A stretch of DNA of 39,450 bases from a virus: IMG/VR virus record IMGVR_UViG_3300046530_000358, positions 1 to 39,450 of that record; one strand, written 5' to 3'. This document shows, in pieces, positions 1 to 10,595 of the stretch (positions are counted from its first letter, which is position 1; each line of letters begins with the position of its first letter). A program made the position numbers and the translations under genes. Below the pieces are notes generated by a model. It was given only the letters and a program-made list of their open reading frames with translations. It was not told the origin of the DNA and did not search any database.

Positions 1-1071
1 TTATTCAAACCGAATCTTTCCGGGTTGAACGCGCTCTGGCTTCCGGCGGTATATGCGATCCGTCACCCGGCTGTCGACATGCGATAGAAGCGCGCGAGCG
101 TGTTCGAGCGTCTCGGCATCGCTGGCGCACTTGGCGCGCAGGTCGTGCTCGGTGAACCTGGCGGTGAGCTTTGTCTCGTTCATCACGCGGATCATAAAGC
201 GCTGCCACATCGAATCCCAACCGCTAACCGTTTCCTTGACGACGTGAATATAGCACTCGCCCGCGCGCGTGCAGAACAGCAGGTGGTCCACTTTGGCTGG
301 CCGGACGGCGATGGCGGTGGCCACGGCCGCGCGCAAATCATCGTTCCACTCGTAAATCGTCGATTTTCCCGTTTTTCCGGCGGTCTTGTGCCTAGTGACG
401 TGTATGCCGTCCTCCTTGAAGGCCTTTTCCGGGTTCAGGCGCAGCAGATCACTCCGGGCCAAGCCGGTTAGAAGCTTGAGCCGGATGTATGCCTGCAGCA
501 TCAGAACGCTGCCTTGCTTGCGCTTGCTGGGCAGGGCCAGTACTTCGATCAGCTCCCAATCCTCCACGTAGCGCACTCGTGCGTCCTCGCCCTCCAAGCG
601 AACCTCGCCTTTGAACGGGTGGCGGGCCATTAGCCCCCATTCAACAGCTTTGGTGAAGGCGTGCGACAGCGCATCCACGGCCCGGTGGGCGGCAATCCGC
701 GTCGCTTTCCTCGACTCAACGTACTGATAAATGTTCTGCGGCTGGATCCAGTCCAGCGGCGCGTCGCCGAAAACGGCCTTCAGATTCCGAAGCGCGCGCC
801 TGCGCTCGACCTGGTGGCGAGGTGACTTCTTGGGCAGCTCCTCCAGTGCATAGCGGTCAAGCAGGGCCCCGATGGTCTTCGCGGCGTCGACAACCTCTAG
901 GCGCTTAGCCCATTCGGCGTATGCCTCGGGCAGCGTGGCGCCCAACCGGAATTTCCGTTTGCCGTCCCAACGGCCCTCCAGCCCGGCCGGCACCTGATAG
1001 TAGTAGGCGCCATGCGCAAGCACCCAGCGCGCCGGCAGGCCGGCGTTTTCCTTTAATCGTTTCCTAGGCAT
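1..1071 (-). CDS. Tyrosine-recombinase integrase of the prophage
   Basis: Site-specific recombinase expected to integrate and excise the phage chromosome. Counting from the ATG at 1071 the protein is 356 aa. An N-terminal arm-binding-like part (about 1-60) precedes a SAM-like core-binding part (about 65-150) and a catalytic domain. The full catalytic set is visible: R206 (TGLARSD), a lysine in the beta-hairpin region (K229-K236), H309 and R312 (HDLR), H331 and nucleophile Y341. An open frame extends upstream to 1203, but that part overlaps the next gene and has no family-like sequence, so I chose the ATG at 1071, which overlaps the DUF4224-like gene by 8 bp. It is the last gene of the leftward block. 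The stop codon is the first three bases of the window, so attL/attP cannot be seen. A second recombinase lies at 14204. Confidence 0.93.
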   Translation of the reverse strand: MPRKRLKENAGLPARWVLAHGAYYYQVPAGLEGRWDGKRKFRLGATLPEAYAEWAKRLEVVDAAKTIGALLDRYALEELPKKSPRHQVERRRALRNLKAVFGDAPLDWIQPQNIYQYVESRKATRIAAHRAVDALSHAFTKAVEWGLMARHPFKGEVRLEGEDARVRYVEDWELIEVLALPSKRKQGSVLMLQAYIRLKLLTGLARSDLLRLNPEKAFKEDGIHVTRHKTAGKTGKSTIYEWNDDLRAAVATAIAVRPAKVDHLLFCTRAGECYIHVVKETVSGWDSMWQRFMIRVMNETKLTARFTEHDLRAKCASDAETLEHARALLSHVDSRVTDRIYRRKPERVQPGKIRFE

Positions 1072-1291
1072 TCGCCGCACTCCAGTTCGGTATAAATTCC
1101 TTCTTTTTCGTCGCCACCGCTGGGGCGCCGCCGAGCTCACGCTCAACATGCGAGCGCAGCACCAGCAGGCCGCCGTCGGCGCGGATTCGGTAGACGATGC
1201 CAAGGGCGTTCAGCATCCGCCTCTGCGCTACCCGCGTTTTCCGATCGGTCATTTCGGCAATTTCTTCGTTGTCGAGGAACATTTTGCTCAC
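1064..1291 (-). CDS. DUF4224-like small protein next to the integrase
   Basis: Small protein of about 75 aa. After the start it reads MFLDNEEIAEMTDRKTRVAQ, the pattern of the DUF4224 family (an FLxxEEIAExTGRK-like opening followed by a basic helix). Members commonly sit directly upstream of phage tyrosine integrases and are suspected to be excisionase-like or integrase accessory proteins; that role is inferred from context. An AAGGAGAG ribosome site lies about 7 bases before a GTG at 1291, which overlaps the upstream stop (GTGA). The ATG at 1282 is the alternative start and begins exactly at the family's conserved N-terminus. The 3' end overlaps the integrase start by 8 bp, suggesting translational coupling. 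Confidence 0.75.
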   Translation of the reverse strand: MSKMFLDNEEIAEMTDRKTRVAQRRMLNALGIVYRIRADGGLLVLRSHVERELGGAPAVATKKKEFIPNWSAANA

Positions 1292-1547: not shown

Positions 1548-1793
1548 TTATTGCGCGTCCGGCGCCAGAGTGATCTCGCTGGCTGGAATCGGCGTCGCGC
1601 TTCCCCTGAGATACACGATCGTCTCAATCCCCGTTCCGGTCGCGTCGATGTTGACGACCTGCAGAAAGCTGGCCTTGCCACGGTAGATGACGCGCTGTGC
1701 TTTGTAGGCAGCCCGAATCAGCATTTGATCGTGAGCAAATGCCTTAGCAACGGCTTGTTGCGAGACACTATCCCGAGGTTCGTTCGCTCTCAT
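1548..1793 (-). CDS. Hypothetical protein, 81 aa
   Basis: Small soluble protein of unknown function. It has a strong ribosome site (AGGAGGA) about 6 bases before the ATG at 1793. Its first 26 bases overlap the 3' end of the reverse transcriptase gene in another frame. The N-terminal half looks helical and charged; the second half (about residues 36-75) has alternating hydrophobic residues suggesting beta strands. It ends 2 bases before the next gene. Its position directly downstream of the DGR reverse transcriptase makes it a candidate DGR-linked accessory gene, but nothing in the sequence proves that. Confidence 0.6.
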   Translation of the reverse strand: MRANEPRDSVSQQAVAKAFAHDQMLIRAAYKAQRVIYRGKASFLQVVNIDATGTGIETIVYLRGSATPIPASEITLAPDAQ

Positions 1794-2922
1794 GGCTCCT
1801 CCTGTAGGTTTTGGTCAGCGCTCCGTTGACGGCGTGACCACGTTGCAGCACGGCGCGCGCCAGCGCGGCACGATCATGGTGACTACTGCCGGCCTGGCGC
1901 AGAAGGCCGAAGTAACTATTTGCCGACGTGTAGACGTCGGCGGCATCAATGCCTGAGACCCGGCTTATCGCCTCCCGGACGGTGCGCCGCCGGGTGCTGC
2001 GATGCCAGGGTCGGACCACGTGACCAACGAAGTCCACACCGCGCGCCACCGGCTGAAGGATGGTTTTCGATGGATTGAGCCGGGCATGCAGCCGATCAGG
2101 CAGGAATGCATCTATACGCTGGTGCGCGGCATGGAGCCACTGCGGCGACTCGTGCAGCAGGACGAAGTCATCCACGTAGCGAATGTAGTGCCGCGCGCGG
2201 ACCTGGTGCTTCGCAAACTGATCTAGTGTATTCAGGTAGACGTTGGCGAAGAACTGCGACGACAGATTCCCGATCGGCAGGCCCAGATGCGGCGCTTGGT
2301 TCATGAGCCTCTTGTGCGGTGGTACGCGCGCCAGCAGCTCCGGCGCGCCCCGCAGTTCAAAATCTTCGCGCGGGTCGTGATGGAGGATTACGCCCGCCAG
2401 TTGCATCCACCATGGCTCCTCGATGCGCTCCGCCAGCTGGGCGTCGAGAATGTGTTTGTCGATCGATACGAAAAAGTTGGCCAGATCGCATTTCAGGTAG
2501 TGCAGCGGCTTGGACCAGTTCTGACTGGCGCTGCGGATCTTCGCTTCCAGCCGCTGTGCGGCGTACATCGTGCCGCGCCCAGGGATGCATGCGCAGGTGT
2601 CCGCGATGAAGCTGCGGTAGAAGCGCGGCGCTATCTTGTTGTAGAACAGGTGGTGCACGATGCGGTCGCGGAAGTCGGCGGCCCACACCTCGCGCGCCTT
2701 CGGCCGGGTGACTACAAAGCATATCGACCTGCCGGGCCGATAGGCGCCGGCCACCAACTCCTCGTACAGCTCAAAGAGGTTTTGCTCCAGGCGCTCTTCG
2801 AATCGAAGAGCGCTCTGGGTGTTGCGCTTGTTACGCCGGCAGTCGAAATACGCGACCACCAGCTCCTCCAGCGAAAAGTCCGCAGGAATTGCATCGTTTC
2901 GATCTGCGGACGACGCGCGCAC
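1768..2922 (-). CDS. DGR reverse transcriptase
   Basis: Reverse transcriptase that copies the TR RNA into adenine-mutagenised cDNA for transfer to the variable repeats. From the GTG at 2922 it has about 384 aa. Family motifs: an N-terminal LEELVVAYFDCRRNKRN-type region; catalytic Asp of motif A in KCDLANFFVSID (D146); IGNLSSQ (217-223), the DGR-type version of motif 4 with SQ instead of the SP of retroviral and group II enzymes; YVDD (249-252) with the two catalytic Asp; and a thumb containing GVDFVGHVVRP. The start is uncertain: the frame is open to 3414, but the family-like sequence begins only about 2880, just after the TR. GTG 2922 and ATG 2961 both lie inside the TR; ATG 3168 lies upstream of it. 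The translation upstream of the TR does not look like protein. Order avd-TR-RT is as in Bordetella phage BPP-1. Confidence 0.93.
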   Translation of the reverse strand: MRASSADRNDAIPADFSLEELVVAYFDCRRNKRNTQSALRFEERLEQNLFELYEELVAGAYRPGRSICFVVTRPKAREVWAADFRDRIVHHLFYNKIAPRFYRSFIADTCACIPGRGTMYAAQRLEAKIRSASQNWSKPLHYLKCDLANFFVSIDKHILDAQLAERIEEPWWMQLAGVILHHDPREDFELRGAPELLARVPPHKRLMNQAPHLGLPIGNLSSQFFANVYLNTLDQFAKHQVRARHYIRYVDDFVLLHESPQWLHAAHQRIDAFLPDRLHARLNPSKTILQPVARGVDFVGHVVRPWHRSTRRRTVREAISRVSGIDAADVYTSANSYFGLLRQAGSSHHDRAALARAVLQRGHAVNGALTKTYRRSHESERTSG

Positions 2923-3010
2923 GGCCTTCGTTGTCCTTGTGGTTGTAGTTCTGGTTGCCATCGTTGAAGTTCTGGTTCCACGCGTTGGAAGGGTTGGAGG
3001 CGTGCTGCGT
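2902..3010 (-). repeat. DGR template repeat (TR), 109 bp
   Basis: Read on the minus strand, this stretch would encode TQHASNPSNAWNQNFNDG followed by NQNYNHKDNEGRARVVRR, with nine AAC codons. It matches the 3' ends of three genes (3567-3675, 5971-6079, 6684-6792). Hand alignment gives 10 mismatches to the 6684 copy, 14 to the 5971 copy and 16 to the 3567 copy (leaving out that copy's first codon), all 40 at TR adenines. The last 28 bases (minus-strand 3' end, 2902-2929) are identical in all four copies and are the likely initiation-of-mutagenic-homing region. It lies between avd and the reverse transcriptase core and overlaps the RT start candidates. AAC codons are typical of TRs because adenine changes there reach many amino acids. 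Confidence 0.96.
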
Positions 3011-3182
3011 CCGTTCGTGCTATCTACGTCGCCCCACCGAAGGCCGTGGCCGATCAGCGGGAAAACTGCGCCAGGCCTAGTCGGACACCGCCGGCTGGTT
3101 CCTGTGGTACGCATAGCGGTGGCCTTGTGAGCCAGCGGCACGACCAGATTTAAAAATCGCTCAGACATGACGGCCTTGACGG
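3011..3182 (-). ncRNA. Upstream part of the DGR template RNA (predicted)
   Basis: 172 bases between the stop of the avd-like gene and the TR. The reading frame here runs into the RT frame but has no protein-like composition, and an ATG at 3168 is the only plausible start. In characterised DGRs the functional template RNA extends beyond the TR on both sides and folds with Avd and RT. By analogy this segment is part of that RNA. No structure was computed; the boundary is inferred only from position. Confidence 0.45.
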
Positions 3183-3539
3183 TCAAGTAGCGGGCGACGA
3201 TGCGGATTGCTTGCGCCATCCATTGGCCTGGCGGCCGATCTTCCCGGTCAGCTCGATCGCCTTCGCGAACTGGCCCTTCGAGATCAGTGTCAGGTCGACC
3301 GAAAGCCGGAACAGCAGCTCCGTGACCTGCACACGCTCCAGCAGCAGCGTGAGGTGCGGCACTTTGTTGCGGGCGCAGTTCGCCTTGTAGACCAACAGCG
3401 AAAGCTCCAGGCACTCGGCGTTGATCTTCTGGCCGACCGTTCCCTTGTAGTCGCGCCGCATGTTCTTGATCAGCTCCATGGCAAGCAACATCAGTTCGTA
3501 GGTCAGCTTGTAGATCGGCAGTTCGGTATGGATGGCCAT
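3183..3539 (-). CDS. avd: Avd-like DGR accessory protein (four-helix bundle)
   Basis: Protein of 118 aa, almost entirely helical and basic, in the range of Avd and the related 23S-rRNA-intervening-sequence (four-helix bundle) family. It opens with a YKLTYELMLLAMELIKNMRR-type helix, followed by three more helices with family-like patterns (ECLELSLLVYKANCARNK; LLLERVQVTELLFRLSVDL; FAKAIELTGKIGRQANGWRK). In Bordetella phage BPP-1 Avd forms a pentamer that binds RT and template RNA and is needed for cDNA synthesis; the same role is inferred here. It lies directly downstream of variable gene 1 (13 bases between stop and ATG) and upstream of the TR, the standard order. No strong ribosome site precedes the ATG, so translation may depend on the upstream gene. 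Confidence 0.88.
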   Translation of the reverse strand: MAIHTELPIYKLTYELMLLAMELIKNMRRDYKGTVGQKINAECLELSLLVYKANCARNKVPHLTLLLERVQVTELLFRLSVDLTLISKGQFAKAIELTGKIGRQANGWRKQSASSPAT

Positions 3540-3552
3540 AGGAATGACTAAA

Positions 3553-3924
3553 TTATTGAATGACTAATCTGCGGACGACGCGCGCACGGCCTTCGCCGTC
3601 CTTGTGGTTGTAGAACTGGCCGCCACCGAGGAAGAGCTGGAGCCACGCGAGGGAAGGGTCGGAGGCGTGCTGTTCGCCGGACCAGTACCAGCGGCGCTCA
3701 AACTCTTCCGGCAGGTTGGCGAACAGCAGCGCCTGCTCGCGACGCATTGGCAACTCGCCGCCGGCGCCGCTGGCGAATTCTTTCGCTTCGCTCCACGTCA
3801 CGTCGGTGGCTTGGCCCGGCAGCAGCACCAGGTGGTAATCAGGGGCGCCGTCTTTGCCCAGAATCAGTCCGGCGTACACTTCGCCGGGATTGAGGTTCTG
3901 CTTCAGAAATAGTGCTTTGGTCAT
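3553..3924 (-). CDS. DGR variable protein 1 (DUF1566/C-type-lectin-like)
   Basis: Target protein of the DGR, 123 aa from the ATG at 3924, which has a GGAG ribosome site; the longer frame to 4050 has no such support. It is a single small domain: YAGLILGKDGAPDYHLVLLP strands, then the ELPMRREQALLFANL segment typical of DUF1566-type lectin folds, then the variable C-terminus starting at RWYWSGEQHAS. VR1 differs from the TR at 16 adenines, giving D, L, L, L, L, G, G, F and G at varied positions; four AAC codons became CTC. The end RRLVIQ is encoded outside the repeat. It is the target next to avd, the usual place for the primary target. The ligand is unknown. Unlike targets 2 and 3, no hairpin follows the gene. 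Confidence 0.92.
   Translation of the reverse strand: MTKALFLKQNLNPGEVYAGLILGKDGAPDYHLVLLPGQATDVTWSEAKEFASGAGGELPMRREQALLFANLPEEFERRWYWSGEQHASDPSLAWLQLFLGGGQFYNHKDGEGRARVVRRLVIQ
3567..3675 (-). repeat. DGR variable repeat VR1
   Basis: Copy of the TR at the 3' end of variable gene 1. From CAGCAC onward all 16 differences from the TR fall at TR adenines. The first codon (GAA versus TR ACG) differs at non-adenine positions, so the true 5' boundary is probably about 3672. The 28-base invariant 3' end abuts the last codons of the gene. Confidence 0.94.
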
Positions 3925-3986
3925 CTTGGTCTCCAGTTGAGGGATCGCCGCCACTGACGGTAGCGGGCTTTGTGCTGCGTGCTGCG

Positions 3987-4103
3987 TTACCACCAGTTCC
4001 AGATCAATGCAGCGATCAGGATTCCGTAGATCAGGAAAATCTCGCCCCACACCTCGCGCGGACGATTTGGCTTGCGACTCGGTCCTTTATCGATCCGCTT
4101 CAT
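3987..4103 (-). CDS. Small membrane protein, 38 aa
   Basis: Starts at the ATG at 4103, overlapping the stop of the HD-domain gene (ATGA), and ends at 3987. A basic N-terminal half ([19 protein letters not shown]) is followed by one hydrophobic segment ([14 protein letters not shown]) and ends NWW: a one-pass inner-membrane protein with cytoplasmic N-terminus by the positive-inside rule. Function unknown. Tight coupling to the HD gene supports it being real despite its size. The 62 bases between it and variable gene 1 carry only that gene's ribosome site. Confidence 0.6.
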
Positions 4104-4669
4104 GACGCCGCTGCCTTGCTCTCTAAAGGCCGTGAGCTGGTCAATTCGAAATAGCGGGCGAGGAAAAGCGCCTTGGCTGGTGCCGGCGCGAGCGGCGTGA
4201 TCGACTTGGTAAGCGGGACCACGCCAGCCAGACAGGCCCACTCGCCAGAGCCTTGTGGCATGAGGTCGCGTTGCTCGGTAGCCAGCATCACCATGTCGGC
4301 AATTTTGATGTCCGCTGGCAGCGGAAGCCCCACGCCGAAGCGCGCCAGAACTGCGCATTCAACTTTACGCTCCAGTTCCTTGTAGTCGGGCAGCATCGCC
4401 TTCAGCGGGCGCGACACATCACCGATGAATGCCTCTGCCGCGTCGTGAAGCAGCCCTTCCAGTGCAAACTTGCGCGGAACGATCTGACTGACCAGCACAG
4501 AATGCTGCGCTACGGAATAGAACTCGCGCACGTGGCCGGTGAAACGGCAGATGTGCGCCAGGGCGTGGGCAATGTCTTCAATACCGAAGATCGATTCGCC
4601 TGGCGTCACGAAGTTGAAGTAATTACCGGACTGCGTGAAGATATCGGGCCGCATCGTCGCGTAGCTCAT
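4100..4669 (-). CDS. HD-domain phosphohydrolase (YfbR-like)
   Basis: Soluble 189-aa protein with an HD metal-dependent phosphohydrolase domain: H56 (AQHSVL), H75-D76 (LLHDAAEAF), and a conserved IGDVSRPLK loop. The pattern resembles the YfbR 5'-deoxynucleotidase branch, which removes phosphate from deoxynucleoside monophosphates. In a phage this could alter the nucleotide pool; the substrate here is an inference. The start overlaps the stop of rdgC (ATGA at 4669-4666) and its own stop overlaps the small membrane protein, so the three are likely translated together. It lies between two DGR target genes on the same strand. Confidence 0.82.
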
Positions 4670-5565
4670 GCTTTGGCCTCCCCGCCCAGCGCTTCGACGA
4701 TGTCGGCGAGCAGTTTACTCAGCTCGCCCGTCATCAGCATGAAATCGCCATCGAAGCGCTCTTCATCGCTCTTCGCACCCAAGTCTTTCTCATTCAAGAC
4801 GTCGAGCGCCTTGACCCCTTTAATCGCCAGCGATTCGGTGAGTACGAAGGAGATCTTGCTATCCCACGTCATTGCCAGGCGCGTGCATTGCTTGCCGGCG
4901 GCGATGTGGCGGCGCACCTCGTCCGGATCGAGCGAGTGCTTCACATAGCGCACCGCAGCCTTGCTGGCACCGGTCGAGCGTAGCTCGGCGTCCATATCGA
5001 CAGTGAACCCGGCTGGCGCCGCGTCGTCTTGCAGCCATGCGGTCATGATCGCAACCGGCGAGCGTTGGACGCGCAGGCTTTCCAGCGGCATACGGTCGAC
5101 TGCCTTGAGCAGCATCTTGATTACTTCATCAGCCTTGGCTGGCGAAGCTGCATCGACAACAAGCCAGCCGTTGACCGGATCGATCCACACCCGCGTGTGA
5201 TTGGGGACGATCAACGCGTTCGGCAGCAGCTCATCGGCGATAAGCTCCTTCAGTTCCTTCATCGCCTTTTTGCCCGGAGCGAATCCTTGTTGCTGCTCCA
5301 GTTCGGCCGCGCGCTCTTTCGCCAGTTTGTTGATCGCCTTTGCCGGCATCACTTTCTTTTCCGTCTTCAGCTGCAGCAGCATCTGCCGATTGACGGTGTG
5401 CACCAGGTCGCCATCGTCGCGTGGCGGCACCCAGCCTTGGCGCTCCAGATCATTGCTTCCGAGTGGCACGAACCACTGTGGCAGCAGCAATTCGATCAGT
5501 GCAGCTGGCGTCATAGCCCAGTTTGTTGGCAGGCGGTAGACCTGCAAATTTTTCAGCCAAGTCAT
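4666..5565 (-). CDS. rdgC: Recombination-associated protein RdgC
   Basis: 299-aa protein with the RdgC family signature: N-terminal [12 protein letters not shown], then GWVPP and [21 protein letters not shown]-type segments, and a C-terminal region with [20 protein letters not shown]. RdgC forms a ring-shaped dimer on DNA and moderates RecA loading. It is usually chromosomal in Beta- and Gammaproteobacteria but is also found on phages. Full family length. Here it is inside the leftward operon between two DGR target genes, so it would be induced with them; whether it affects homing of cDNA or only phage recombination cannot be told from sequence. Confidence 0.9.
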
Positions 5566-5574
5566 AATTATTTC

Positions 5575-5769
5575 CTAGTTGTTGGATTTAAGAAGCGCTT
5601 CCATGCGATCTGCAGCCGCGCTCTCGGCCGCCAGCGCCGCGCGCAGCTCAGTGCGCCGCGCGTTGAATTCCGCGAAGAGTTCAGCCGTCCGCTCGGTGCA
5701 CTGACGGTAGGCACGGATCGCTGCGCGCCGGCGAAAGTAGAGCGCCCAGGCGCTTACGATGCGCTTCAT
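5575..5769 (-). CDS. Hypothetical protein, 64 aa
   Basis: Small basic, alanine- and arginine-rich helical protein (MKRIVSAWALYFRRRAAI...), with a predicted helix from about residue 25 to the end (TAELFAEFNARRTELRAALA) that could form a coiled coil. The start overlaps the stop of the preceding small gene (ATGA at 5769-5766). It lies 9 bases upstream of rdgC. No family recognised. Its coupling to neighbours is the main evidence for it. Confidence 0.55.
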   Translation of the reverse strand: MKRIVSAWALYFRRRAAIRAYRQCTERTAELFAEFNARRTELRAALAAESAAADRMEALLKSNN

Positions 5770-5897
5770 GGCCGCACCATCGCGGTGACGCCCAGCGCTC
5801 CGGCGTCGTATGCTGCATCGATGAGCAAACCCAGATCGCCGATTGCGGCGTAGCTGCGCATTCCATCGGCGGTGCGTTCGGTGATGAGGTACTTCAT
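5766..5897 (-). CDS. Hypothetical protein, 43 aa
   Basis: Short protein starting MKYLITERTADGMRSYAAIG. The ATG at 5897 is preceded by a GGAGATACAC leader almost identical to that in front of variable gene 2 (GGAGATACACC before 6601), so it has its own ribosome site. The sequence predicts two short beta strands and a helix; no family recognised. Its stop overlaps the next start (ATGA). Confidence 0.55.
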   Translation of the reverse strand: MKYLITERTADGMRSYAAIGDLGLLIDAAYDAGALGVTAMVRP

Positions 5898-5921
5898 GTG
5901 TATCTCCATCAGGTTGCGGAT

Positions 5922-5937
5922 GCGCCGTCGCCGGCGC
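5922..5937 (-). other. GC-rich hairpin with GNRA loop downstream of VR2
   Basis: On the minus strand: a 6-bp stem GCGCCG/CGGCGC closed by the tetraloop GCGA, 33 bases after the end of VR2 and about 20 after the stop codon. No T tract follows, so it is a poor terminator. In Bordetella phage BPP-1 a GC-rich hairpin downstream of VR enhances retrohoming; this may be the equivalent, though further from the VR. Confidence 0.5.
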
Positions 5938-5956
5938 GGCGTTTTGAATTGATGAA

Positions 5957-6601
5957 TTACTGAATTGGCAATCTGCGGACGACGCGCGCACGGCCTTCGT
6001 AGTCCTTGCGGCTGAAGTCCTGGATGCCAGCGTCGAAGCCCTGGCCCCACGCGTTGGAAGGGTAGGAGGCGCGCTGCGTGCTGGACCAGTACCACCAGTC
6101 TTCGAACGCGTCGGCGCCGCCTTCGCGGAAGTTCTCCAGCGCGGTTTGCGCAGGGAATTCGTCGGTATAGGCATCGCCAACTGGCACGCTGCTCGGATTA
6201 ATTCCGTCCTCGCCGTCGGCGTAGTTCTCGTAGCTGGTCGGCTTGAATGCGCGGTATTGCAGCTCCTGCTCGTCGCGAGACGGCACGTACCAGTCGCTGT
6301 AGCCGTTGATCGTCAGTGCCAGCGCTGCCTTGGCCAGTTCGCTGCCGGCGCCAGCCAGGGCCTCGGTGTTCTTCTGTCCGTCGGCGCGGTGATCTGCGCC
6401 ATCAACAGCGGTCAGGTCCGGCTGCAGCTTGCCGCGCAGTGTACCGGCGGCGCCGGCCGTGATCAGCGCGAACTGCTTGTCGCCCACCTGGATGATGCCG
6501 GTGTAGAAGCCGCCAGCGAAGGCCGCGCCGATGGTCGGCAATGCCGCCAACGGGACGGTTGGAAAGGCGGTTTCAGTTGCTGCGGCTACAGAAGTGCTCA
6601 T
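5957..6601 (-). CDS. DGR variable protein 2 (DUF1566/C-type-lectin-like)
   Basis: 214-aa target protein. The ATG at 6601 has a GGAG ribosome site. After a short Ala/Thr-rich N-terminus, residues from about 29 on resemble variable protein 3: GGFYTGIIQVGDKQFALITAG, then NGYSDWYVPSRDEQELQYRA, the hallmark of DUF1566-type lectin folds, then the variable end from YWSSTQRAS. VR2 differs from the TR at 14 adenines, including a His-to-Arg at TQR and changes at GAT and TAC codons. No signal peptide is seen, so export would have to occur by virion attachment, lysis or another route. Together with protein 3 it forms a pair of paralogues; both end RRLPI. Ligand unknown. Confidence 0.92.
   Translation of the reverse strand: MSTSVAAATETAFPTVPLAALPTIGAAFAGGFYTGIIQVGDKQFALITAGAAGTLRGKLQPDLTAVDGADHRADGQKNTEALAGAGSELAKAALALTINGYSDWYVPSRDEQELQYRAFKPTSYENYADGEDGINPSSVPVGDAYTDEFPAQTALENFREGGADAFEDWWYWSSTQRASYPSNAWGQGFDAGIQDFSRKDYEGRARVVRRLPIQ
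5971..6079 (-). repeat. DGR variable repeat VR2
   Basis: 109-bp copy of the TR at the 3' end of variable gene 2; 14 mismatches, all at TR adenines, and an invariant 28-base 3' end. Confidence 0.95.
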
Positions 6602-6635
6602 GGTGTATCTCCATAGGTTAGAAATAAAAGAAACT

Positions 6636-6652
6636 CCGGCGCCGCGCGCCGG
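6636..6652 (-). other. GC-rich hairpin downstream of VR3
   Basis: Stem CCGGCGC/GCGCCGG with a 3-base loop, 31 bases after the end of VR3 and about 20 after the stop codon of variable gene 3. No T tract. Position matches the hairpin after VR2, supporting a shared role, for example in DGR homing. Confidence 0.5.
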
Positions 6653-6672
6653 CTTACGAAATTACTGAAGGA

Positions 6673-7479
6673 CTAAATTGGCAATCTGCGGACGACGCGC
6701 GCACGGCCTTCGTCGTCCTTGTGGCCGTAGTCCTGGTAGCCATCGTTGAAGTACTGGACCCACGCGTAGGAAGGGTAGGAGGCGTGCTGCGTGCTGGACC
6801 AGTACCAGGCCTCGGCGAACGCGTCGACACCACCGGAGCGGAAGTTGGAGGCGCCGGTCTGCGCCGGCAAATCCTTCGTGTACAGCTTACCGACTGGTGC
6901 GCTACTTGGGTTTTCGCCATCGCCGCTACTGACGTAGTTGGGTCGCGTGGTTGGCTTGAGGTTGCGGTACTGGAGTTCCTGCTCGTCACGCGATGGGATG
7001 TACCAGTCGTTGTGGCTGTTGGTATTGAGCGCGAAGGCCTGCGCGGCAATGGTGCTCCCGGCCATCGCCATCTTGCGGGTGTTGGCGAGCCCATCGCAGC
7101 GGCTGGTGGCACCTTCGACGCTGGCGCCGCTCCATGCTCCGCGCAGCTCGCCGTCGACGCCGGCCGTGATCAGCGCGTATCGCTGACCATCAACCACGAT
7201 GATGCCGGTGAAGTATCCGCCGCCCAGCGGCGCGCCGAAGCGCATGCCTTCGAAGAAGGTCGCCGCGCCGGCGCCCAGATGGGCAATCAGTTCAGGGGAC
7301 GCGGTGATGATGCGCTGCTCGGCGTCGAGCACAATGAGGTGCTGGCCGGCGCGGTCGGTGTATTCGGTGAGGCCTTTCCACGTCGAGGAGATGGCCAGGC
7401 CAGTAATTGTGCGATCACCCAGCTTGGCGCTATAGGTGCGTTCTTCGGTGATGCTCAGGACTGCGGCGGTAGGCGCCAT
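6673..7479 (-). CDS. DGR variable protein 3 (DUF1566/C-type-lectin-like)
   Basis: 268-aa target protein and first gene of the leftward operon. I chose the ATG at 7479 because GGAG lies 6 bases before it; the ATG at 7491 would include that ribosome site in the coding sequence. An N-terminal part of about 75 residues absent from protein 2 (containing TITGLAISSTWKGLTEYTD) is followed by GGGYFTGIIVVDGQRYALI, the NSHNDWYIPSRDEQELQYRN lectin-fold signature and the variable end from YWSSTQHAS. VR3 differs from the TR at 10 adenines; five AAC codons are altered to TAC or GTC and others to GAC or GGC, giving an aromatic-rich surface (Y, Y, V, Y, Y). It is the least diverged of the three VRs, so it may be the most recently rewritten or under selection. 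Confidence 0.92.
   Translation of the reverse strand: MAPTAAVLSITEERTYSAKLGDRTITGLAISSTWKGLTEYTDRAGQHLIVLDAEQRIITASPELIAHLGAGAATFFEGMRFGAPLGGGYFTGIIVVDGQRYALITAGVDGELRGAWSGASVEGATSRCDGLANTRKMAMAGSTIAAQAFALNTNSHNDWYIPSRDEQELQYRNLKPTTRPNYVSSGDGENPSSAPVGKLYTKDLPAQTGASNFRSGGVDAFAEAWYWSSTQHASYPSYAWVQYFNDGYQDYGHKDDEGRARVVRRLPI
6684..6792 (-). repeat. DGR variable repeat VR3
   Basis: 109-bp copy of the TR at the 3' end of variable gene 3; 10 mismatches, all at TR adenines, with the invariant 28-base 3' end. Confidence 0.95.
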
Positions 7480-7514
7480 GTTGTTCTCCATCGGTTTGGT
7501 GAGTCGATGGAGTG

Positions 7515-7542
7515 ATTATAGCTAATAGCTAAATTAAGTAAA
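7515..7542 (-). promoter_or_regulatory. Leftward early promoter (pL-like) of the DGR operon
   Basis: Read on the minus strand: -35 TTTACT (7542-7537), 16-bp spacer, perfect -10 TATAAT (7520-7515). Transcription would start near 7508, giving a leader of about 30 bases before variable gene 3. Operator 7519-7531 overlaps the spacer and the last two bases of the -10. The arrangement is the same as at the cro promoter. Confidence 0.8.
7519..7531. promoter_or_regulatory. Repressor operator-like palindrome oL-a
   Basis: TAGC-TAATA-GCTA. Same half-sites and spacing as the palindromes between cI and cro; overlaps the leftward promoter. Confidence 0.7.
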
Positions 7543-7551
7543 GAAAAAATA

Positions 7552-7564
7552 TAGCGATTAGCTA
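7552..7564. promoter_or_regulatory. Repressor operator-like palindrome oL-b
   Basis: TAGC-GATTA-GCTA, the exact reverse complement of the site at 8830-8842. Lies just upstream of the leftward -35 element, centre 33 bp from oL-a. Confidence 0.7.
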
Positions 7565-7622
7565 AATTATTTTTTACCCTTAGTTATGCGCGTTGTGTTT
7601 CCGCACTGCGAACTTTGTTGCT

Positions 7623-8012
7623 TTATCGGTACTCGCCGCCCAGCGCAACGCAGTTGATGCTTTGGGGATCATCTAGCTTGACCGCTGTCCCCTTGCCTAC
7701 TGGTCGAGACCAGGCGAGCAGCCCGAATTTTTGGCCTGTATCCATGCTCACGATGGCGTCTGCGCCGATCCGCCTGGCGTCCGCCGCCATCAACGGGAGC
7801 AGTTCATTTACGCTGCCATACGTGCGCTTTGAACTATCTATCAAGCCGATAGTCGTCGCCGTGACGCCAACGGGGAGCGGGGATTTGAGCATACACACCG
7901 GTCCGGTGTGGCTGGCATACGTTTTCTCTGGGTAAGGTGAGAGTTTCACCGTCGACCTAGCGGCACACCCGCAAAGAACCATCGTTATCACAATTCCTGA
8001 AATGATCTTCAT
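7623..8012 (-). CDS. Putative lipoprotein, possible lysogenic conversion gene
   Basis: 129 aa from the ATG at 8012. The N-terminus is a lipoprotein signal: MKIISGIVITMVLCGCAARS, with lipobox LCGC and Cys about residue 16. A longer frame to 8135 overlaps the repressor gene and would hide the signal, so I rejected it. The mature part contains ADARRIGADAIVSMDTGQKF, which resembles the repeated-gene/metal-binding-like lipoproteins with a 'xADAIVxM' core, but I cannot assign a family firmly. It follows cI on the same strand with 28 bases between and could be expressed from the prophage with the repressor. Morons in this place often alter the cell surface or block superinfection; that is an inference. 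Confidence 0.75.
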   Translation of the reverse strand: MKIISGIVITMVLCGCAARSTVKLSPYPEKTYASHTGPVCMLKSPLPVGVTATTIGLIDSSKRTYGSVNELLPLMAADARRIGADAIVSMDTGQKFGLLAWSRPVGKGTAVKLDDPQSINCVALGGEYR

Positions 8013-8040
8013 AAATCCCCTATTATGGCCAGCGCCTGGT

Positions 8041-8769
8041 TTAAAATTTTGAGCCTTCCCGCCGAACAACTCGCCCGACGACAATACATTCGCCGCCCCG
8101 GCATGATCGCCTATGAAATCGCCGCTGGTCAGCATTGTCTGACATTAGCCACCATTGCCCTTGGTCCCGCGCCAAGCGTTTGACGATTGCCTCGCCCTCA
8201 TAGTTCACCGCGTAAATTGCGTTGTCTACCAATTTGCGGTCAGCCAAATTGATCACGATGGTATCGCCCTCGTAGAGGGTCGGCTCCATGCTTTCACCCT
8301 TAACCTGGATTGCGACGAGATGTGCAGGGTCCAGGCCTTCACGATCCGTCCAGTCGCGAGGGATGCTTTTCTTGCCACCCGATTGATACTCTGGATCCGT
8401 TCGTAAGCCTTGAACACCGGCTTGCAGCCTAAGTCTCACCAGGGGAATCTGATAAAAATGTTCGGAATCAGCATCCACTGCTACTACCGGCACGCCACCT
8501 GGGAAAATCTGTTCGACTGCCGCCAAATCGAGCTGATCGTGATCCGTATCCATCCAGCCTGGCGCTTCATCCAATGCAGATTCGATCCGGCGGGCCAGGT
8601 CTTCGCCCATAGTCTTCGGCTTCCCCGTCTTGCTTTCGGGGGTCTGGTTTTTCAACTGGCTCAAATAGGCAGCCGAAGTCCCGACGCGCTCCGCCAGCTT
8701 CGCAGCCGTTTGCATTCGATCTATTGCCAGCAGCAGATTCGCTCGGCGGATTTCATCGTTAGTTTTCAT
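8041..8769 (-). CDS. CI-type repressor with S24 (LexA-like) peptidase domain
   Basis: 242 aa. N-terminal helix-turn-helix (about 12-45, with TAAKLAERVGTSAAYLSQLK), linker, and C-terminal S24 domain with the Ser-Lys dyad: S160 in GESMEPT and K197 in EAIVKRL. A likely self-cleavage site is A117-G118 (RLQAGVQ). Such repressors hold the prophage silent and are inactivated through RecA after DNA damage. I chose the ATG at 8769; the ATG at 8787 lies inside an operator. No ribosome site is seen before 8769; a TATCTA element ends 8 bases upstream, so the mRNA may be leaderless as for lambda cI. It faces the Cro-like gene. Identical operator motifs at the leftward promoter imply it also silences the DGR operon. 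Confidence 0.92.
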   Translation of the reverse strand: MKTNDEIRRANLLLAIDRMQTAAKLAERVGTSAAYLSQLKNQTPESKTGKPKTMGEDLARRIESALDEAPGWMDTDHDQLDLAAVEQIFPGGVPVVAVDADSEHFYQIPLVRLRLQAGVQGLRTDPEYQSGGKKSIPRDWTDREGLDPAHLVAIQVKGESMEPTLYEGDTIVINLADRKLVDNAIYAVNYEGEAIVKRLARDQGQWWLMSDNADQRRFHRRSCRGGECIVVGRVVRREGSKF

Positions 8770-8781
8770 AGGGCTATTAGA

Positions 8782-8794
8782 TAGCATATCGCTA
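8782..8794. promoter_or_regulatory. Repressor operator-like palindrome near cI
   Basis: TAGC-ATATC-GCTA. Centre 8788, exactly 24 bp from the degenerate middle site (8806-8818, only the GCTA half preserved, centre 8812), which is 24 bp from the cro-proximal site (centre 8836). Overlaps the probable cI promoter. Confidence 0.7.
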
Positions 8795-8818
8795 AATAAG
8801 AAAATGTGTGATTCGCTA

Positions 8819-8846
8819 TTGCATTTATTTAGCTAATCGCTATACT
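8819..8846 (+). promoter_or_regulatory. Rightward early promoter (pR-like) of cro
   Basis: -35 TTGCAT (8819-8824), 16-bp spacer, -10 TATACT (8841-8846). Same length as the leftward promoter, with 21 of 28 positions identical between the two. Transcription should start at about 8852-8854, right at the cro ATG (8853), so the cro mRNA is probably leaderless. Confidence 0.78.
8830..8842. promoter_or_regulatory. Repressor operator-like palindrome near cro
   Basis: TAGC-TAATC-GCTA, overlapping the first two bases of the cro -10 element, the same overlap as oL-a has with the leftward -10. Confidence 0.72.
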
Positions 8847-8852
8847 TCTCGC

Positions 8853-9077
8853 ATGAACTTACGTGACTACCTAACTCAAGAGCGCGGCCGCCAAGCGATG
8901 CTGGCAAAGATCATCGGAGCGCATGCGCCAGACGTCAGCCGGTGGGCAGACGGATCACGACCCGTTCCTGCGGAGCGGTGCGCAGATATTGAGATCGCAA
9001 CCGCCGGCGCCGTGACAAGGAAGGATCTGCGCCCCGAGGATTGGCATCGAATCTGGCCTGAGCTGAACGCTAAATAG
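8853..9077 (+). CDS. Cro/YdaS-like DNA-binding protein
   Basis: 74-aa protein starting MNLRDYLTQERGRQAMLAKI. Its helix-turn-helix (about residues 12-32, AMLAKIIGAHAPDVSRWADG) and following RPVPAERCADIEIAT segment match the YdaS/Cro type found as first rightward gene in many temperate phages. By analogy it binds the same operators as the repressor and favours lytic growth. The frame is open to a GTG at 8808, but that would place three operators in the coding sequence; ATG 8853 lies at the predicted transcription start. The 141 bases after the gene are AT-rich toward the end and carry only the ribosome site of the CII-like gene that I can see. Confidence 0.82.
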   Translation: MNLRDYLTQERGRQAMLAKIIGAHAPDVSRWADGSRPVPAERCADIEIATAGAVTRKDLRPEDWHRIWPELNAK

Positions 9078-9218
9078 CTGACCGCTCCCGATGGGCTGGC
9101 AGCAGCCGTTCTGTTCATGTGGCGCCCTTCTGTCTTGTGTGATCACGACATTTCCTCAGTTTCAATAAGTATCACATTTCTTTTCGTTAATAACCTCATT
9201 TGTTTTAAAGGCTTGCAA

Positions 9219-9662
9219 ATGAATATCCCCGACACCCTGTACAAGACCGCGCACGACTTCGCCGGTGGCTGCGAAGCGCTGGCTCAGCGGCTGGGCATGT
9301 CTGCGCAGGTCCTGCGCAACAAGGTCAATCCGAACAACGCCTCGAACACCGCCTCGCTGGAAGACGCTGATCGGATCATGGCAATCACCAACGATCACGC
9401 GGTTCTGCACGCGCTGGCACGCAGCCACGGCTTCGTCTGCGTGCGCGTGGATACCGGCGCCGTCGCATCGGACATGGCGGTGCTGGAGCTGGTGATGCAG
9501 GTTTGGTCCGCTAGCGGCGACGTCGGAGCCGAGGTGCACGCCACTCTGGCGGACGGCATCGTCGAGCAGCACGAAGTGGAGCGCGTAGAGGCTGCTGTCT
9601 ACCGCGTCAATCGCTCGCTGAGCGAAATGGCCGCCCGCTTGAAAGGCATGGTGAAGAAATGA
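9219..9662 (+). CDS. CII-like phage regulatory protein (Phage_CP76 family)
   Basis: 147-aa protein. The first 70 residues (MNIPDTLYKTAHDFAGGCEA, LAQRLGMSAQVLRNKVNPNN) are characteristic of the Phage_CP76/CII-like family: a helix-turn-helix with a conserved LRNKxNP motif. The C-terminal part is helical. Its role is likely early regulation, possibly the lysis-lysogeny choice. I chose ATG 9219 (AAAGG upstream); the longer frame to 9117 covers AT-rich leader. The stop overlaps the next small start (ATGA at 9659). Confidence 0.85.
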   Translation: MNIPDTLYKTAHDFAGGCEALAQRLGMSAQVLRNKVNPNNASNTASLEDADRIMAITNDHAVLHALARSHGFVCVRVDTGAVASDMAVLELVMQVWSASGDVGAEVHATLADGIVEQHEVERVEAAVYRVNRSLSEMAARLKGMVKK

Positions 9663-9787
9663 CAGTGGCATCGAATAAAGAATCGAAGGAACCGGTGGCG
9701 CCAGCCACGCGGGAGTTTGATCCGGGCCATGTAATGACCCGGCAGCACTACGAGCGCCTGGCCCGCGAAGCTGCGGCCCAGAAATAG
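9659..9787 (+). CDS. Small hypothetical protein, 42 aa
   Basis: Starts MTVASNKESKEPVAPATREF, charged and soluble, with a helical C-terminus (TRQHYERLAREAAAQK). It overlaps the CII-like gene stop (ATGA) and ends 2 bases before a hairpin terminator. No family recognised. Coupling and correct spacing to the terminator support it. Confidence 0.55.
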   Translation: MTVASNKESKEPVAPATREFDPGHVMTRQHYERLAREAAAQK

Positions 9788-10301: not shown

Positions 10302-10595
10302 ACGCCGGCGCAGAAGTGATGATCGCCGGGGGGGGGGCATCAATTTCAGCATGGTCGCCTGCGCAGACTGGACGCGGCCTCCTACACAATTCCTTTCGCA
10401 CACGTTCAGCTGCGCGGCGTCAAGGGAACGTTGCTGAAAAATCGTTGGGCCTTCGTGCCGGCGAAGTATCTGGTCGAGTTCGACGTGGAAGCGCTCCGCG
10501 AGGGCGAAATGCGCAAGACGGCCGAGCGCTATGGTGCCGACTCGGACGCATACAAGCGCATGCTCAAGCTAATGGAGGTCGCGCATGAAGCGTGA
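10298..10595 (+). pseudogene. Gene split by a frameshift at a G10 tract
   Basis: The ATG at 10298 (overlapping the previous stop) reads MNAGAEVMIAGGG and reaches a run of ten G at 10328-10337. The downstream part with clear coding character (SYTIPFAHVQLRGVKGTLLK, NRWAFVPAKYLVEFDVEALR, then EGEMRKTAERYGADSDAYKR and MLKLMEVAHEA) is in another frame, open from 10323 to a TGA at 10593 but with no start codon. With nine G instead of ten the two parts join into one protein of about 98 aa. Causes could be a sequencing error, a real mutation, or slippage-based on/off switching. The 3' end overlaps the methyltransferase start by 11 bases. No family recognised. Confidence 0.6.

What the first reader, a model, noticed from the sequence alone, without database searches (positions are those of the whole stretch)
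6673..8846. DGR operon appears to be under prophage repressor control from twin early promoters
The first DGR target is preceded by a promoter (TTTACT-16-TATAAT) with an operator-like palindrome TAGC-N5-GCTA overlapping the -10 by two bases. The cro promoter (TTGCAT-16-TATACT) has the same palindrome in the same place; over 28 bp the two promoters share 21 positions. A second palindrome upstream of the leftward promoter is the exact reverse complement of the cro-proximal one. So mutagenic diversification would be silent in the lysogen and switched on with induction, linking DNA damage to protein diversification.
Basis: partly seen in the sequence, partly recalled or inferred. Interest (0 to 1): 0.8.

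Follow-up and report, generated by a model that had tools for sequence, protein, structure and literature searches.

The report
Mutation-making phage operon under prophage repressor
A bacterial virus that can deliberately rewrite some of its own genes keeps that mutation machinery behind the same DNA switch that holds the virus dormant, and related viruses that swapped to a different switch carried the matching control sites with it, which suggests diversification is timed to viral awakening.

Summary
Observation confirmed. The promoter of the first DGR target (7542-7515, minus) and the cro promoter (8819-8846) match at 21 of 28 positions. TAGC-N5-GCTA occurs exactly four times in 39.45 kb: two sites at the DGR promoter, two between cI and cro.

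The decisive evidence is comparative. Relatives keep the same DGR but carry different repressor DNA-binding domains and operators. In eight immunity types the DGR promoter carries that phage's own cI/cro operator: own pairing is the best score in every row and column, reached by 1 of 40,320 permutations. Homology on the DGR side stops around the promoter and start site and resumes near cII, so promoter, operators, cI and cro move as one cassette.

The DGR promoter sits where lambda has PL: target genes, rdgC, Avd, RT and integrase form the leftward early gene block. Best reading: CI silences the DGR in the lysogen and induction turns it on. Binding, transcription and DGR timing are untested. 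The SOS link is plausible here (LexA-like CI) but not general: two of six types scanned lack the peptidase domain. Repressor-linked DGR activity was already shown in hankyphage: a new variant of a known kind.

The parts
7515..7542 (-). DGR-operon promoter (PL-like): -35 TTTACT (7542-7537), -10 TATAAT (7520-7515)
7519..7531 (.). OL1: TAGCTATTAGCTA on the DGR strand, overlaps the -10 by two bases
7552..7564 (.). OL2, 33 bp from OL1; same sequence as the cro-proximal operator when read on the DGR strand
7486..7512 (-). 5' leader hairpin CTCCATCG...CGATGGAG that pairs the Shine-Dalgarno GGAG (7489-7486) of VP1
   Evidence: RNA fold -11.8 kcal/mol, z -5.87
6673..7479 (-). VP1, first DGR target gene (Lcl_C domain, VR at about 6684-6792)
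5957..6601 (-). VP2, second DGR target gene
4666..5565 (-). rdgC (recombination-associated) in the same gene block
4100..4669 (-). YfbR-like gene (Pfam match below the curated cut-off)
3553..3924 (-). VP3, third DGR target gene
3183..3539 (-). Avd, DGR accessory protein
2902..3010 (-). template repeat (TR)
1768..2880 (-). DGR reverse transcriptase (start approximate)
1..1203 (-). integrase at the far end of the leftward gene block
7623..8012 (-). lipoprotein-like accessory gene between cI and PL (the rexAB-like position)
   Evidence: no clear family; signal sequence judged by eye
8041..8769 (-). cI-like repressor with LexA/UmuD-type S24 domain
8782..8794 (.). operator near the cI start / PRM side: TAGCATATCGCTA
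8819..8846 (+). cro promoter (PR): TTGCAT-16-TATACT
8830..8842 (.). operator at PR: TAGCTAATCGCTA
8853..9077 (+). cro-like gene (YdaS / P22 Cro HTH)
9219..9662 (+). CII-like activator (Phage_CP76)

Best explanation
The DGR genes are the leftward early (PL-type) operon of a lambda-like temperate phage. CI dimers bind two operators (OL1 over the -10 and spacer, OL2 33 bp upstream) and keep the operon off in the lysogen, as they do the cro promoter. When CI is lost (here probably by RecA-stimulated self-cleavage of its S24 domain), PL and PR fire together. The target proteins, Avd, TR RNA and RT are then made early, while the phage genome replicates, so mutated variable regions go into the progeny. 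Shown here: the shared operators, their exclusive location, their co-variation with repressor type and the cassette boundaries. Inferred: binding, repression, induction and timing of mutagenesis.
For: Exact operators occur only at the DGR promoter and cI/cro. In 8 immunity types the DGR promoter matches its own cI/cro region best in every row and column; 1 of 40,320 permutations reaches the observed sum (319.4; mean 148.9), and 34 other gene starts in the same records score at most 21.9. Operator-motif scans of whole records find sites only at cI/cro or the first-VR promoter. In all 7 records of the first matrix the best match lies in the cro-promoter direction. Repressor N-terminal halves are at most 31% identical between types where aligned over 48 or more residues, and often do not align. 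Homology on the DGR side ends at window 7509-7513 (L083, L164, L166), 7536 (L086) or 7548 (L082) and resumes at 9159-9252 in the four relatives that align over cII. In 51 of 51 RT-anchored loci with a detectable cI (of 160 RT loci), cI is upstream of and co-oriented with the RT. cI relatives in phages with no DGR gene detected in the fetched DNA (L009, L046, L068, L078) have the same pair of operators 48 bp apart at cI and one or two further sites about 0.9-2.0 kb further on. In hankyphage, silencing the CI-like repressor raised expression of most phage genes, and packaged DNA carried DGR mutations.
Against: No binding, transcript or VR-mutation data exist for this phage. The regions in the permutation test were chosen after the pattern had been seen by eye. 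L082 is weaker than the rest (4 of 300 shuffles reach it), and in L164 the shared motif is not clearly palindromic. A GC-rich hairpin with a loose T-rich tail after VP1 (6652-6636) could weaken read-through into the Avd and RT genes, so VP1 may be more tightly tied to PL than the RT is.
Confidence: 0.88

Rival explanations
1. PL control applies only to the target genes: transcription stops at the hairpin after VP1, and the Avd-TR-RT block has its own unseen promoter, so mutagenesis itself is not repressor-controlled.
For: Terminator-like hairpin at 6652-6636. TR RNA could be made separately; Rfam finds an RT-15 RNA at 3008-3199.
Against: No consensus promoter was found upstream of VP3, Avd, TR or RT. 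The hairpin sits just past the VR, where DGRs carry a homing hairpin (recalled; only the search listing with the abstract start of PMC3240598 was seen).
Confidence: 0.25
2. The shared sites are mainly Cro targets: Cro switches the DGR operon off late in the lytic cycle, and CI plays little part.
For: Cro and CI usually share operators in lambda-type switches (established knowledge).
Against: Compatible with CI control rather than exclusive of it. Operators overlap the -10, and the cro-like proteins match different HTH families across types.
Confidence: 0.08
3. The resemblance is a by-product of cassette exchange: promoter and operators came along with cI/cro by linkage, without selection for repressed mutagenesis.
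For: Homology boundaries lie close to the PL promoter and start site. PL regions of phages without a detected DGR have the same layout.
Against: Even then the DGR would be repressor-controlled, so this bears on why, not whether. No test here separates linkage from selection.
Confidence: 0.3
4. Chance AT-rich palindromes near promoters.
For: With one mismatch allowed, the pattern is no commoner than expected in the window.
Against: Simulations of the two regions never gave 4 exact sites in 5000. Co-variation in 8 of 8 types.
Confidence: 0.01

Closest known systems
Lambda immunity region and PL operon (OL/PL-N...int; rexAB-cI-OR/PR-cro; recalled)
   Same: Divergent cI and cro, one operator family at both early promoters, accessory gene next to cI, CII-like gene beyond cro, and a leftward gene block that ends in recombination (rdgC) and integration genes.
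   Different: The leftward operon begins with DGR target genes and carries the DGR. Two exact operators per control region were detected here, against three in lambda. No N-type antiterminator was looked for.
Hankyphage (Bacteroides, Mu-like) DGR under the RepC(HP) repressor (PMC12135933; sections 8 and 9 and passages read)
   Same: Silencing the CI-like repressor raises phage gene expression; DGR mutations are found in the packaged DNA.
   Different: Mu-like phage with a tail-fibre target. I saw no operator evidence at a DGR promoter in the sections read. Some DGR activity was seen without induction.
Bordetella phage BPP-1 DGR (mtd-avd-TR-brt) (recalled; search listings only)
   Same: Avd, TR, RT and adenine-directed diversification of C-type-lectin targets.
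   Different: Target is the tail-tip receptor-binding protein beside structural genes (recalled). Here three targets with Lcl_C-type or related C-terminal regions lie in the early gene block.
Pseudoalteromonas phages ACA1/ACA2 (P2-like) DGR (PMC10612066, passages read)
   Same: DGR in a temperate phage with Avd, TR and RT downstream of the target.
   Different: The target is the antireceptor (tail-fibre part), and no link to an early promoter is described in the passages read.

Membership tests
Diversity-generating retroelement | DGR-type reverse transcriptase | tested here: met
   RVT_1, phrog_1423 reverse transcriptase, 60-86% identity to RTs in the 80 bacterial contigs kept
Diversity-generating retroelement | TR/VR pairs that differ at TR adenines | tested here: met
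   13, 17 and 21 of the mismatches of VR1, VR2, VR3 are at TR A; the rest (6, 7 and 10) lie mostly at the ends of the 122-bp comparison
Diversity-generating retroelement | Avd accessory protein | tested here: met
   bAvd Pfam, phrog_3206 'Avd protein of DGR'
Diversity-generating retroelement | Observed retrohoming or VR diversity in a population | not testable with these tools
   no reads available
Lambda-type immunity region with PL operon | Divergent repressor and cro-like HTH genes | tested here: met
   Window. Other types L082, L083, L086, L164, L166: (the L083 proteins match only PHROGs)
Lambda-type immunity region with PL operon | Same operators at rightward and leftward early promoters | tested here: met
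Lambda-type immunity region with PL operon | Leftward operon with recombination genes and int | tested here: inconclusive
   rdgC and integrase are on the same strand downstream, but a continuous transcript was not shown
Lambda-type immunity region with PL operon | N-type antitermination | not tested
   no search made for N or nut sites
Lambda-type immunity region with PL operon | Repressor binds both operators | not testable with these tools
   needs gel shift or footprint
SOS-inducible LexA/CI-type repressor | S24 autocleavage domain | tested here: met
   Window: Pfam S24, LexA chains in PDB. Not met in L083 and L164

The most novel reading that the evidence does not exclude
In a broad group of Burkholderiales and Pseudomonas temperate phages the DGR is a standard content of the repressor-controlled leftward early operon. 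It diversifies early, non-tail proteins only during lytic growth, and immunity-cassette swaps with a joint near the PL promoter and transcription start keep it matched to whatever repressor the phage carries. DGR mutagenesis would then be a programmed early lytic function, not a constitutive one.
Probability: 0.5. Interest if true: 0.75.

Novelty: new variant of a known kind. Interest (0 to 1): 0.62.

Why it matters
[quoted passage not shown]). This gives a concrete, testable answer for one phage group: mutagenesis genes behind PL, on with induction and replication. It fits a recent report that replication direction governs DGR editing (PMC12875486). It also offers a natural series of eight repressor types on related DGRs, useful for experiments and as an evolutionary demonstration that control follows the repressor.

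Tried and rejected
Tried without use. (1) A one-mismatch operator scan of the window is not enriched. (2) A viral-contig search for the palindrome at the L258 DGR promoter (a fragment without cI) gave at least 120 unspecific AT-rich hits; L258 stays a prediction only. (3) The broad automatic scan (46 clusters) scores high only where the first gene after PL is a VR gene. L039 looked positive by eye (TTAGTGTTTGCTAA against TTAGTGTTCACTAA) but scored at background (rank 11 of 46) and is not counted. L059/L072/L212 and L178 are negative; their VR gene is not next to PL. Most Pseudomonas loci are negative in this test. (4) The scan from the cI end to the RT ranks the own immunity region first in 16 of 43; at least three of these (L145, L173, L218) do not look like operators, so I use it only as support. 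(5) An AlphaFold model of VP1 had mean pLDDT 30.7 and was discarded. (6) Chance, Cro-only control and separate promoters for the DGR core were considered (see rivals).

Limits. Operator motifs for one search were written by eye from the same sequences, so only their absence elsewhere in the records is independent. The eight types were partly selected: six were first seen by eye, and the last two (L008, L173) were added because they scored rank 1. Some loci are copies of one phage in two collections or calls (L083/L085/L165; L166/L244; L219/L246; L089/L174/L245; L163/L171); each type counts once. One search did not remove duplicates and covers 51 of 160 RT-anchored loci; the other 109 had no cI match at E 1e-3.

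Full report
What is in the sequence. The record is an IMG/VR virus contig of 39,450 bp. On the minus strand, from right to left, lie cI (8041-8769), a lipoprotein-like gene (7623-8012), then VP1, VP2, rdgC, a YfbR-like gene, VP3, Avd, TR, RT and, at the end, an integrase. On the plus strand a cro-like gene (8853-9077) and a CII-like gene follow. The DGR is genuine. Three variable repeats differ from the TR at 13, 17 and 21 adenines; the other mismatches (6, 7 and 10) are mostly at the ends of the 122-bp comparison. Avd and RT match their families.

The observation. Every stated detail checks: the two promoters, spacing 16, the palindromes overlapping the -10 by two bases, 21 of 28 shared positions, and the reverse-complement relation. 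TAGC-N5-GCTA occurs exactly four times in the window, two per control region. Simulations of the window give 0.28 on average. Simulations of the two AT-rich regions give 0.03 and never four in 5000. Allowing one mismatch, the pattern is at background (13 against 10.15).

The test that decides it. If the phage repressor controls the DGR, then phages with the same DGR but another repressor should carry another operator at the DGR promoter. Relatives were fetched by repressor, target protein and RT. L082, L083, L086, L164 and L166 keep the VP1-to-RT block (VP1 35-68%, RT 79-84% identical) but have repressor N-terminal halves that are at most 31% identical where aligned over 48 or more residues, and often do not align. 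Each DGR promoter carries that phage's own cI/cro operator: TTAGGCATGCCTAA in L082, TTTATCTTTTTGGTAAG in L083, TTAGTAGGACTAA in L086, TATCCATTCGCGTATA in L166, TGGTTTAGCG in L164. L084 has the window's type and the window's operators. The broad scan added L008 and L173. It also showed L089, L169 and L163 as second carriers of types already counted, and the operator scan did the same for L219.

Statistics. With six types, 1 of 720 permutations reaches the observed sum. With eight types, own pairings are the maximum of every row and every column, and 1 of 40,320 permutations reaches the observed sum (319.4; next 298.2; mean 148.9). Of 35 upstream regions of other genes in the same records, 34 score at most 21.9; the 35th (L008, 35.7) is the DGR promoter region itself. 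Of seven records tested against 300 dinucleotide shuffles each, six have no shuffle reaching the observed score and L082 has four. In all seven records of the first matrix the best match lies in the cro-promoter orientation. Whole-record operator scans find sites only at cI/cro or the first-VR promoter; these motifs were derived from the same regions, so only the absence elsewhere is independent.

How the match is kept. Nucleotide homology to the window from the DGR side ends at 7511 (L083), 7513 (L164) and 7509 (L166), right after the -10 at the expected start of the leader. It ends at 7536 in L086 and 7548 in L082, within the promoter. It resumes at 9159-9252 in L082, L083, L166 and L086, near cII; in L164 the next match beyond is at 9692. 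Between these limits only L082 keeps a patch, over the cI peptidase domain (8123-8319). So promoter, operators, accessory gene, cI and cro appear to travel as one cassette. This is the lambda PL-cI-PR arrangement. cI relatives in phages with no DGR gene detected in the fetched DNA (L009, L046, L068, L078) have two operators 48 bp apart at cI and one or two more about 0.9-2.0 kb further on, so the DGR seems to occupy a common PL slot. In 51 of 51 RT-anchored loci with a detectable cI (of 160 RT loci), cI is upstream and co-oriented with the RT. A looser scan between cI and RT ranks the own immunity region first in 16 of 43 representatives; at least three of these do not look like operators.

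Mechanism. Most likely CI occupies OL1 and OL2 in the lysogen and excludes RNA polymerase, since OL1 covers the spacer and -10. On loss of CI both early promoters fire. The window's CI has an S24 domain related to LexA, so DNA damage is a likely trigger. The L083 and L164 repressors have no S24 match, so the general rule is 'own repressor', not 'SOS'. Cro may later shut PL. Early expression would coincide with phage replication; a recent study found that replication direction governs DGR editing (PMC12875486, passages read). None of these steps was measured here.

Literature. In hankyphage, silencing the CI-like repressor raised expression of most phage genes, and DGR mutations were found in packaged DNA (7.93-fold over non-targeted positions after silencing, 3.32-fold without); uninduced cultures also showed DGR activity (PMC12135933, sections 8 and 9 and passages). 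[quoted passage not shown] A large DGR survey does not use the words temperate, lysogen, prophage, repressor or promoter in its main text (PMC8144416, word search). I found no paper describing operators at a DGR promoter or a DGR in a PL operon in eight searches of an open-access library; most subscription papers are missing from it.

Verdict. Because repressor-linked DGR activity is already reported in one phage and PL control is textbook, I call this a new variant of a known kind, with its interest in the comparative evidence and in making DGR timing testable.

Noticed in passing
window 7486-7512 (minus); L082, L083, L084, L086, L164, L166, L008, L163, L169: The VP1 leader starts with a hairpin (CTCCATCG...CGATGGAG) that pairs the Shine-Dalgarno GGAG. 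Nine of ten leaders folded have z of -2.4 or lower; L166 is weak at -0.94. L173 has a different stem sequence (CCGTATTG...CAATACGG) in the same place, and L076, with no DGR gene detected, seems to have one too, so it may be a PL-leader feature.
   Followed up: partly
window 3008-3199 (minus): Rfam RT-15 RNA (RF03018), full length, 176.5 bits, between Avd and TR; possibly part of the TR RNA.
   Followed up: no
window 6636-6652 and 5922-5942: GC-rich hairpins just past VR1 and VR2, where DGRs have a homing hairpin (recalled); the first has a loose T-rich tail.
   Followed up: no
L258:1-134: A VP1 homologue whose promoter carries two AAACATAGTGTTT palindromes; the fragment lacks cI. Prediction: its repressor binds this sequence.
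   Followed up: partly
window 7623-8012 (minus): Small lipoprotein-like gene between cI and PL; L084 has a 69% identical copy, while no homologue was found in L082 and L083: a candidate lysogenic-conversion slot.
   Followed up: no
window 3553-7479: Three DGR targets lie in the early gene block, not near the tail genes; their role is unknown.
   Followed up: no
window 10328-10337: Run of ten G in a coding-dense region, a possible slippage site or sequencing artefact.
   Followed up: no
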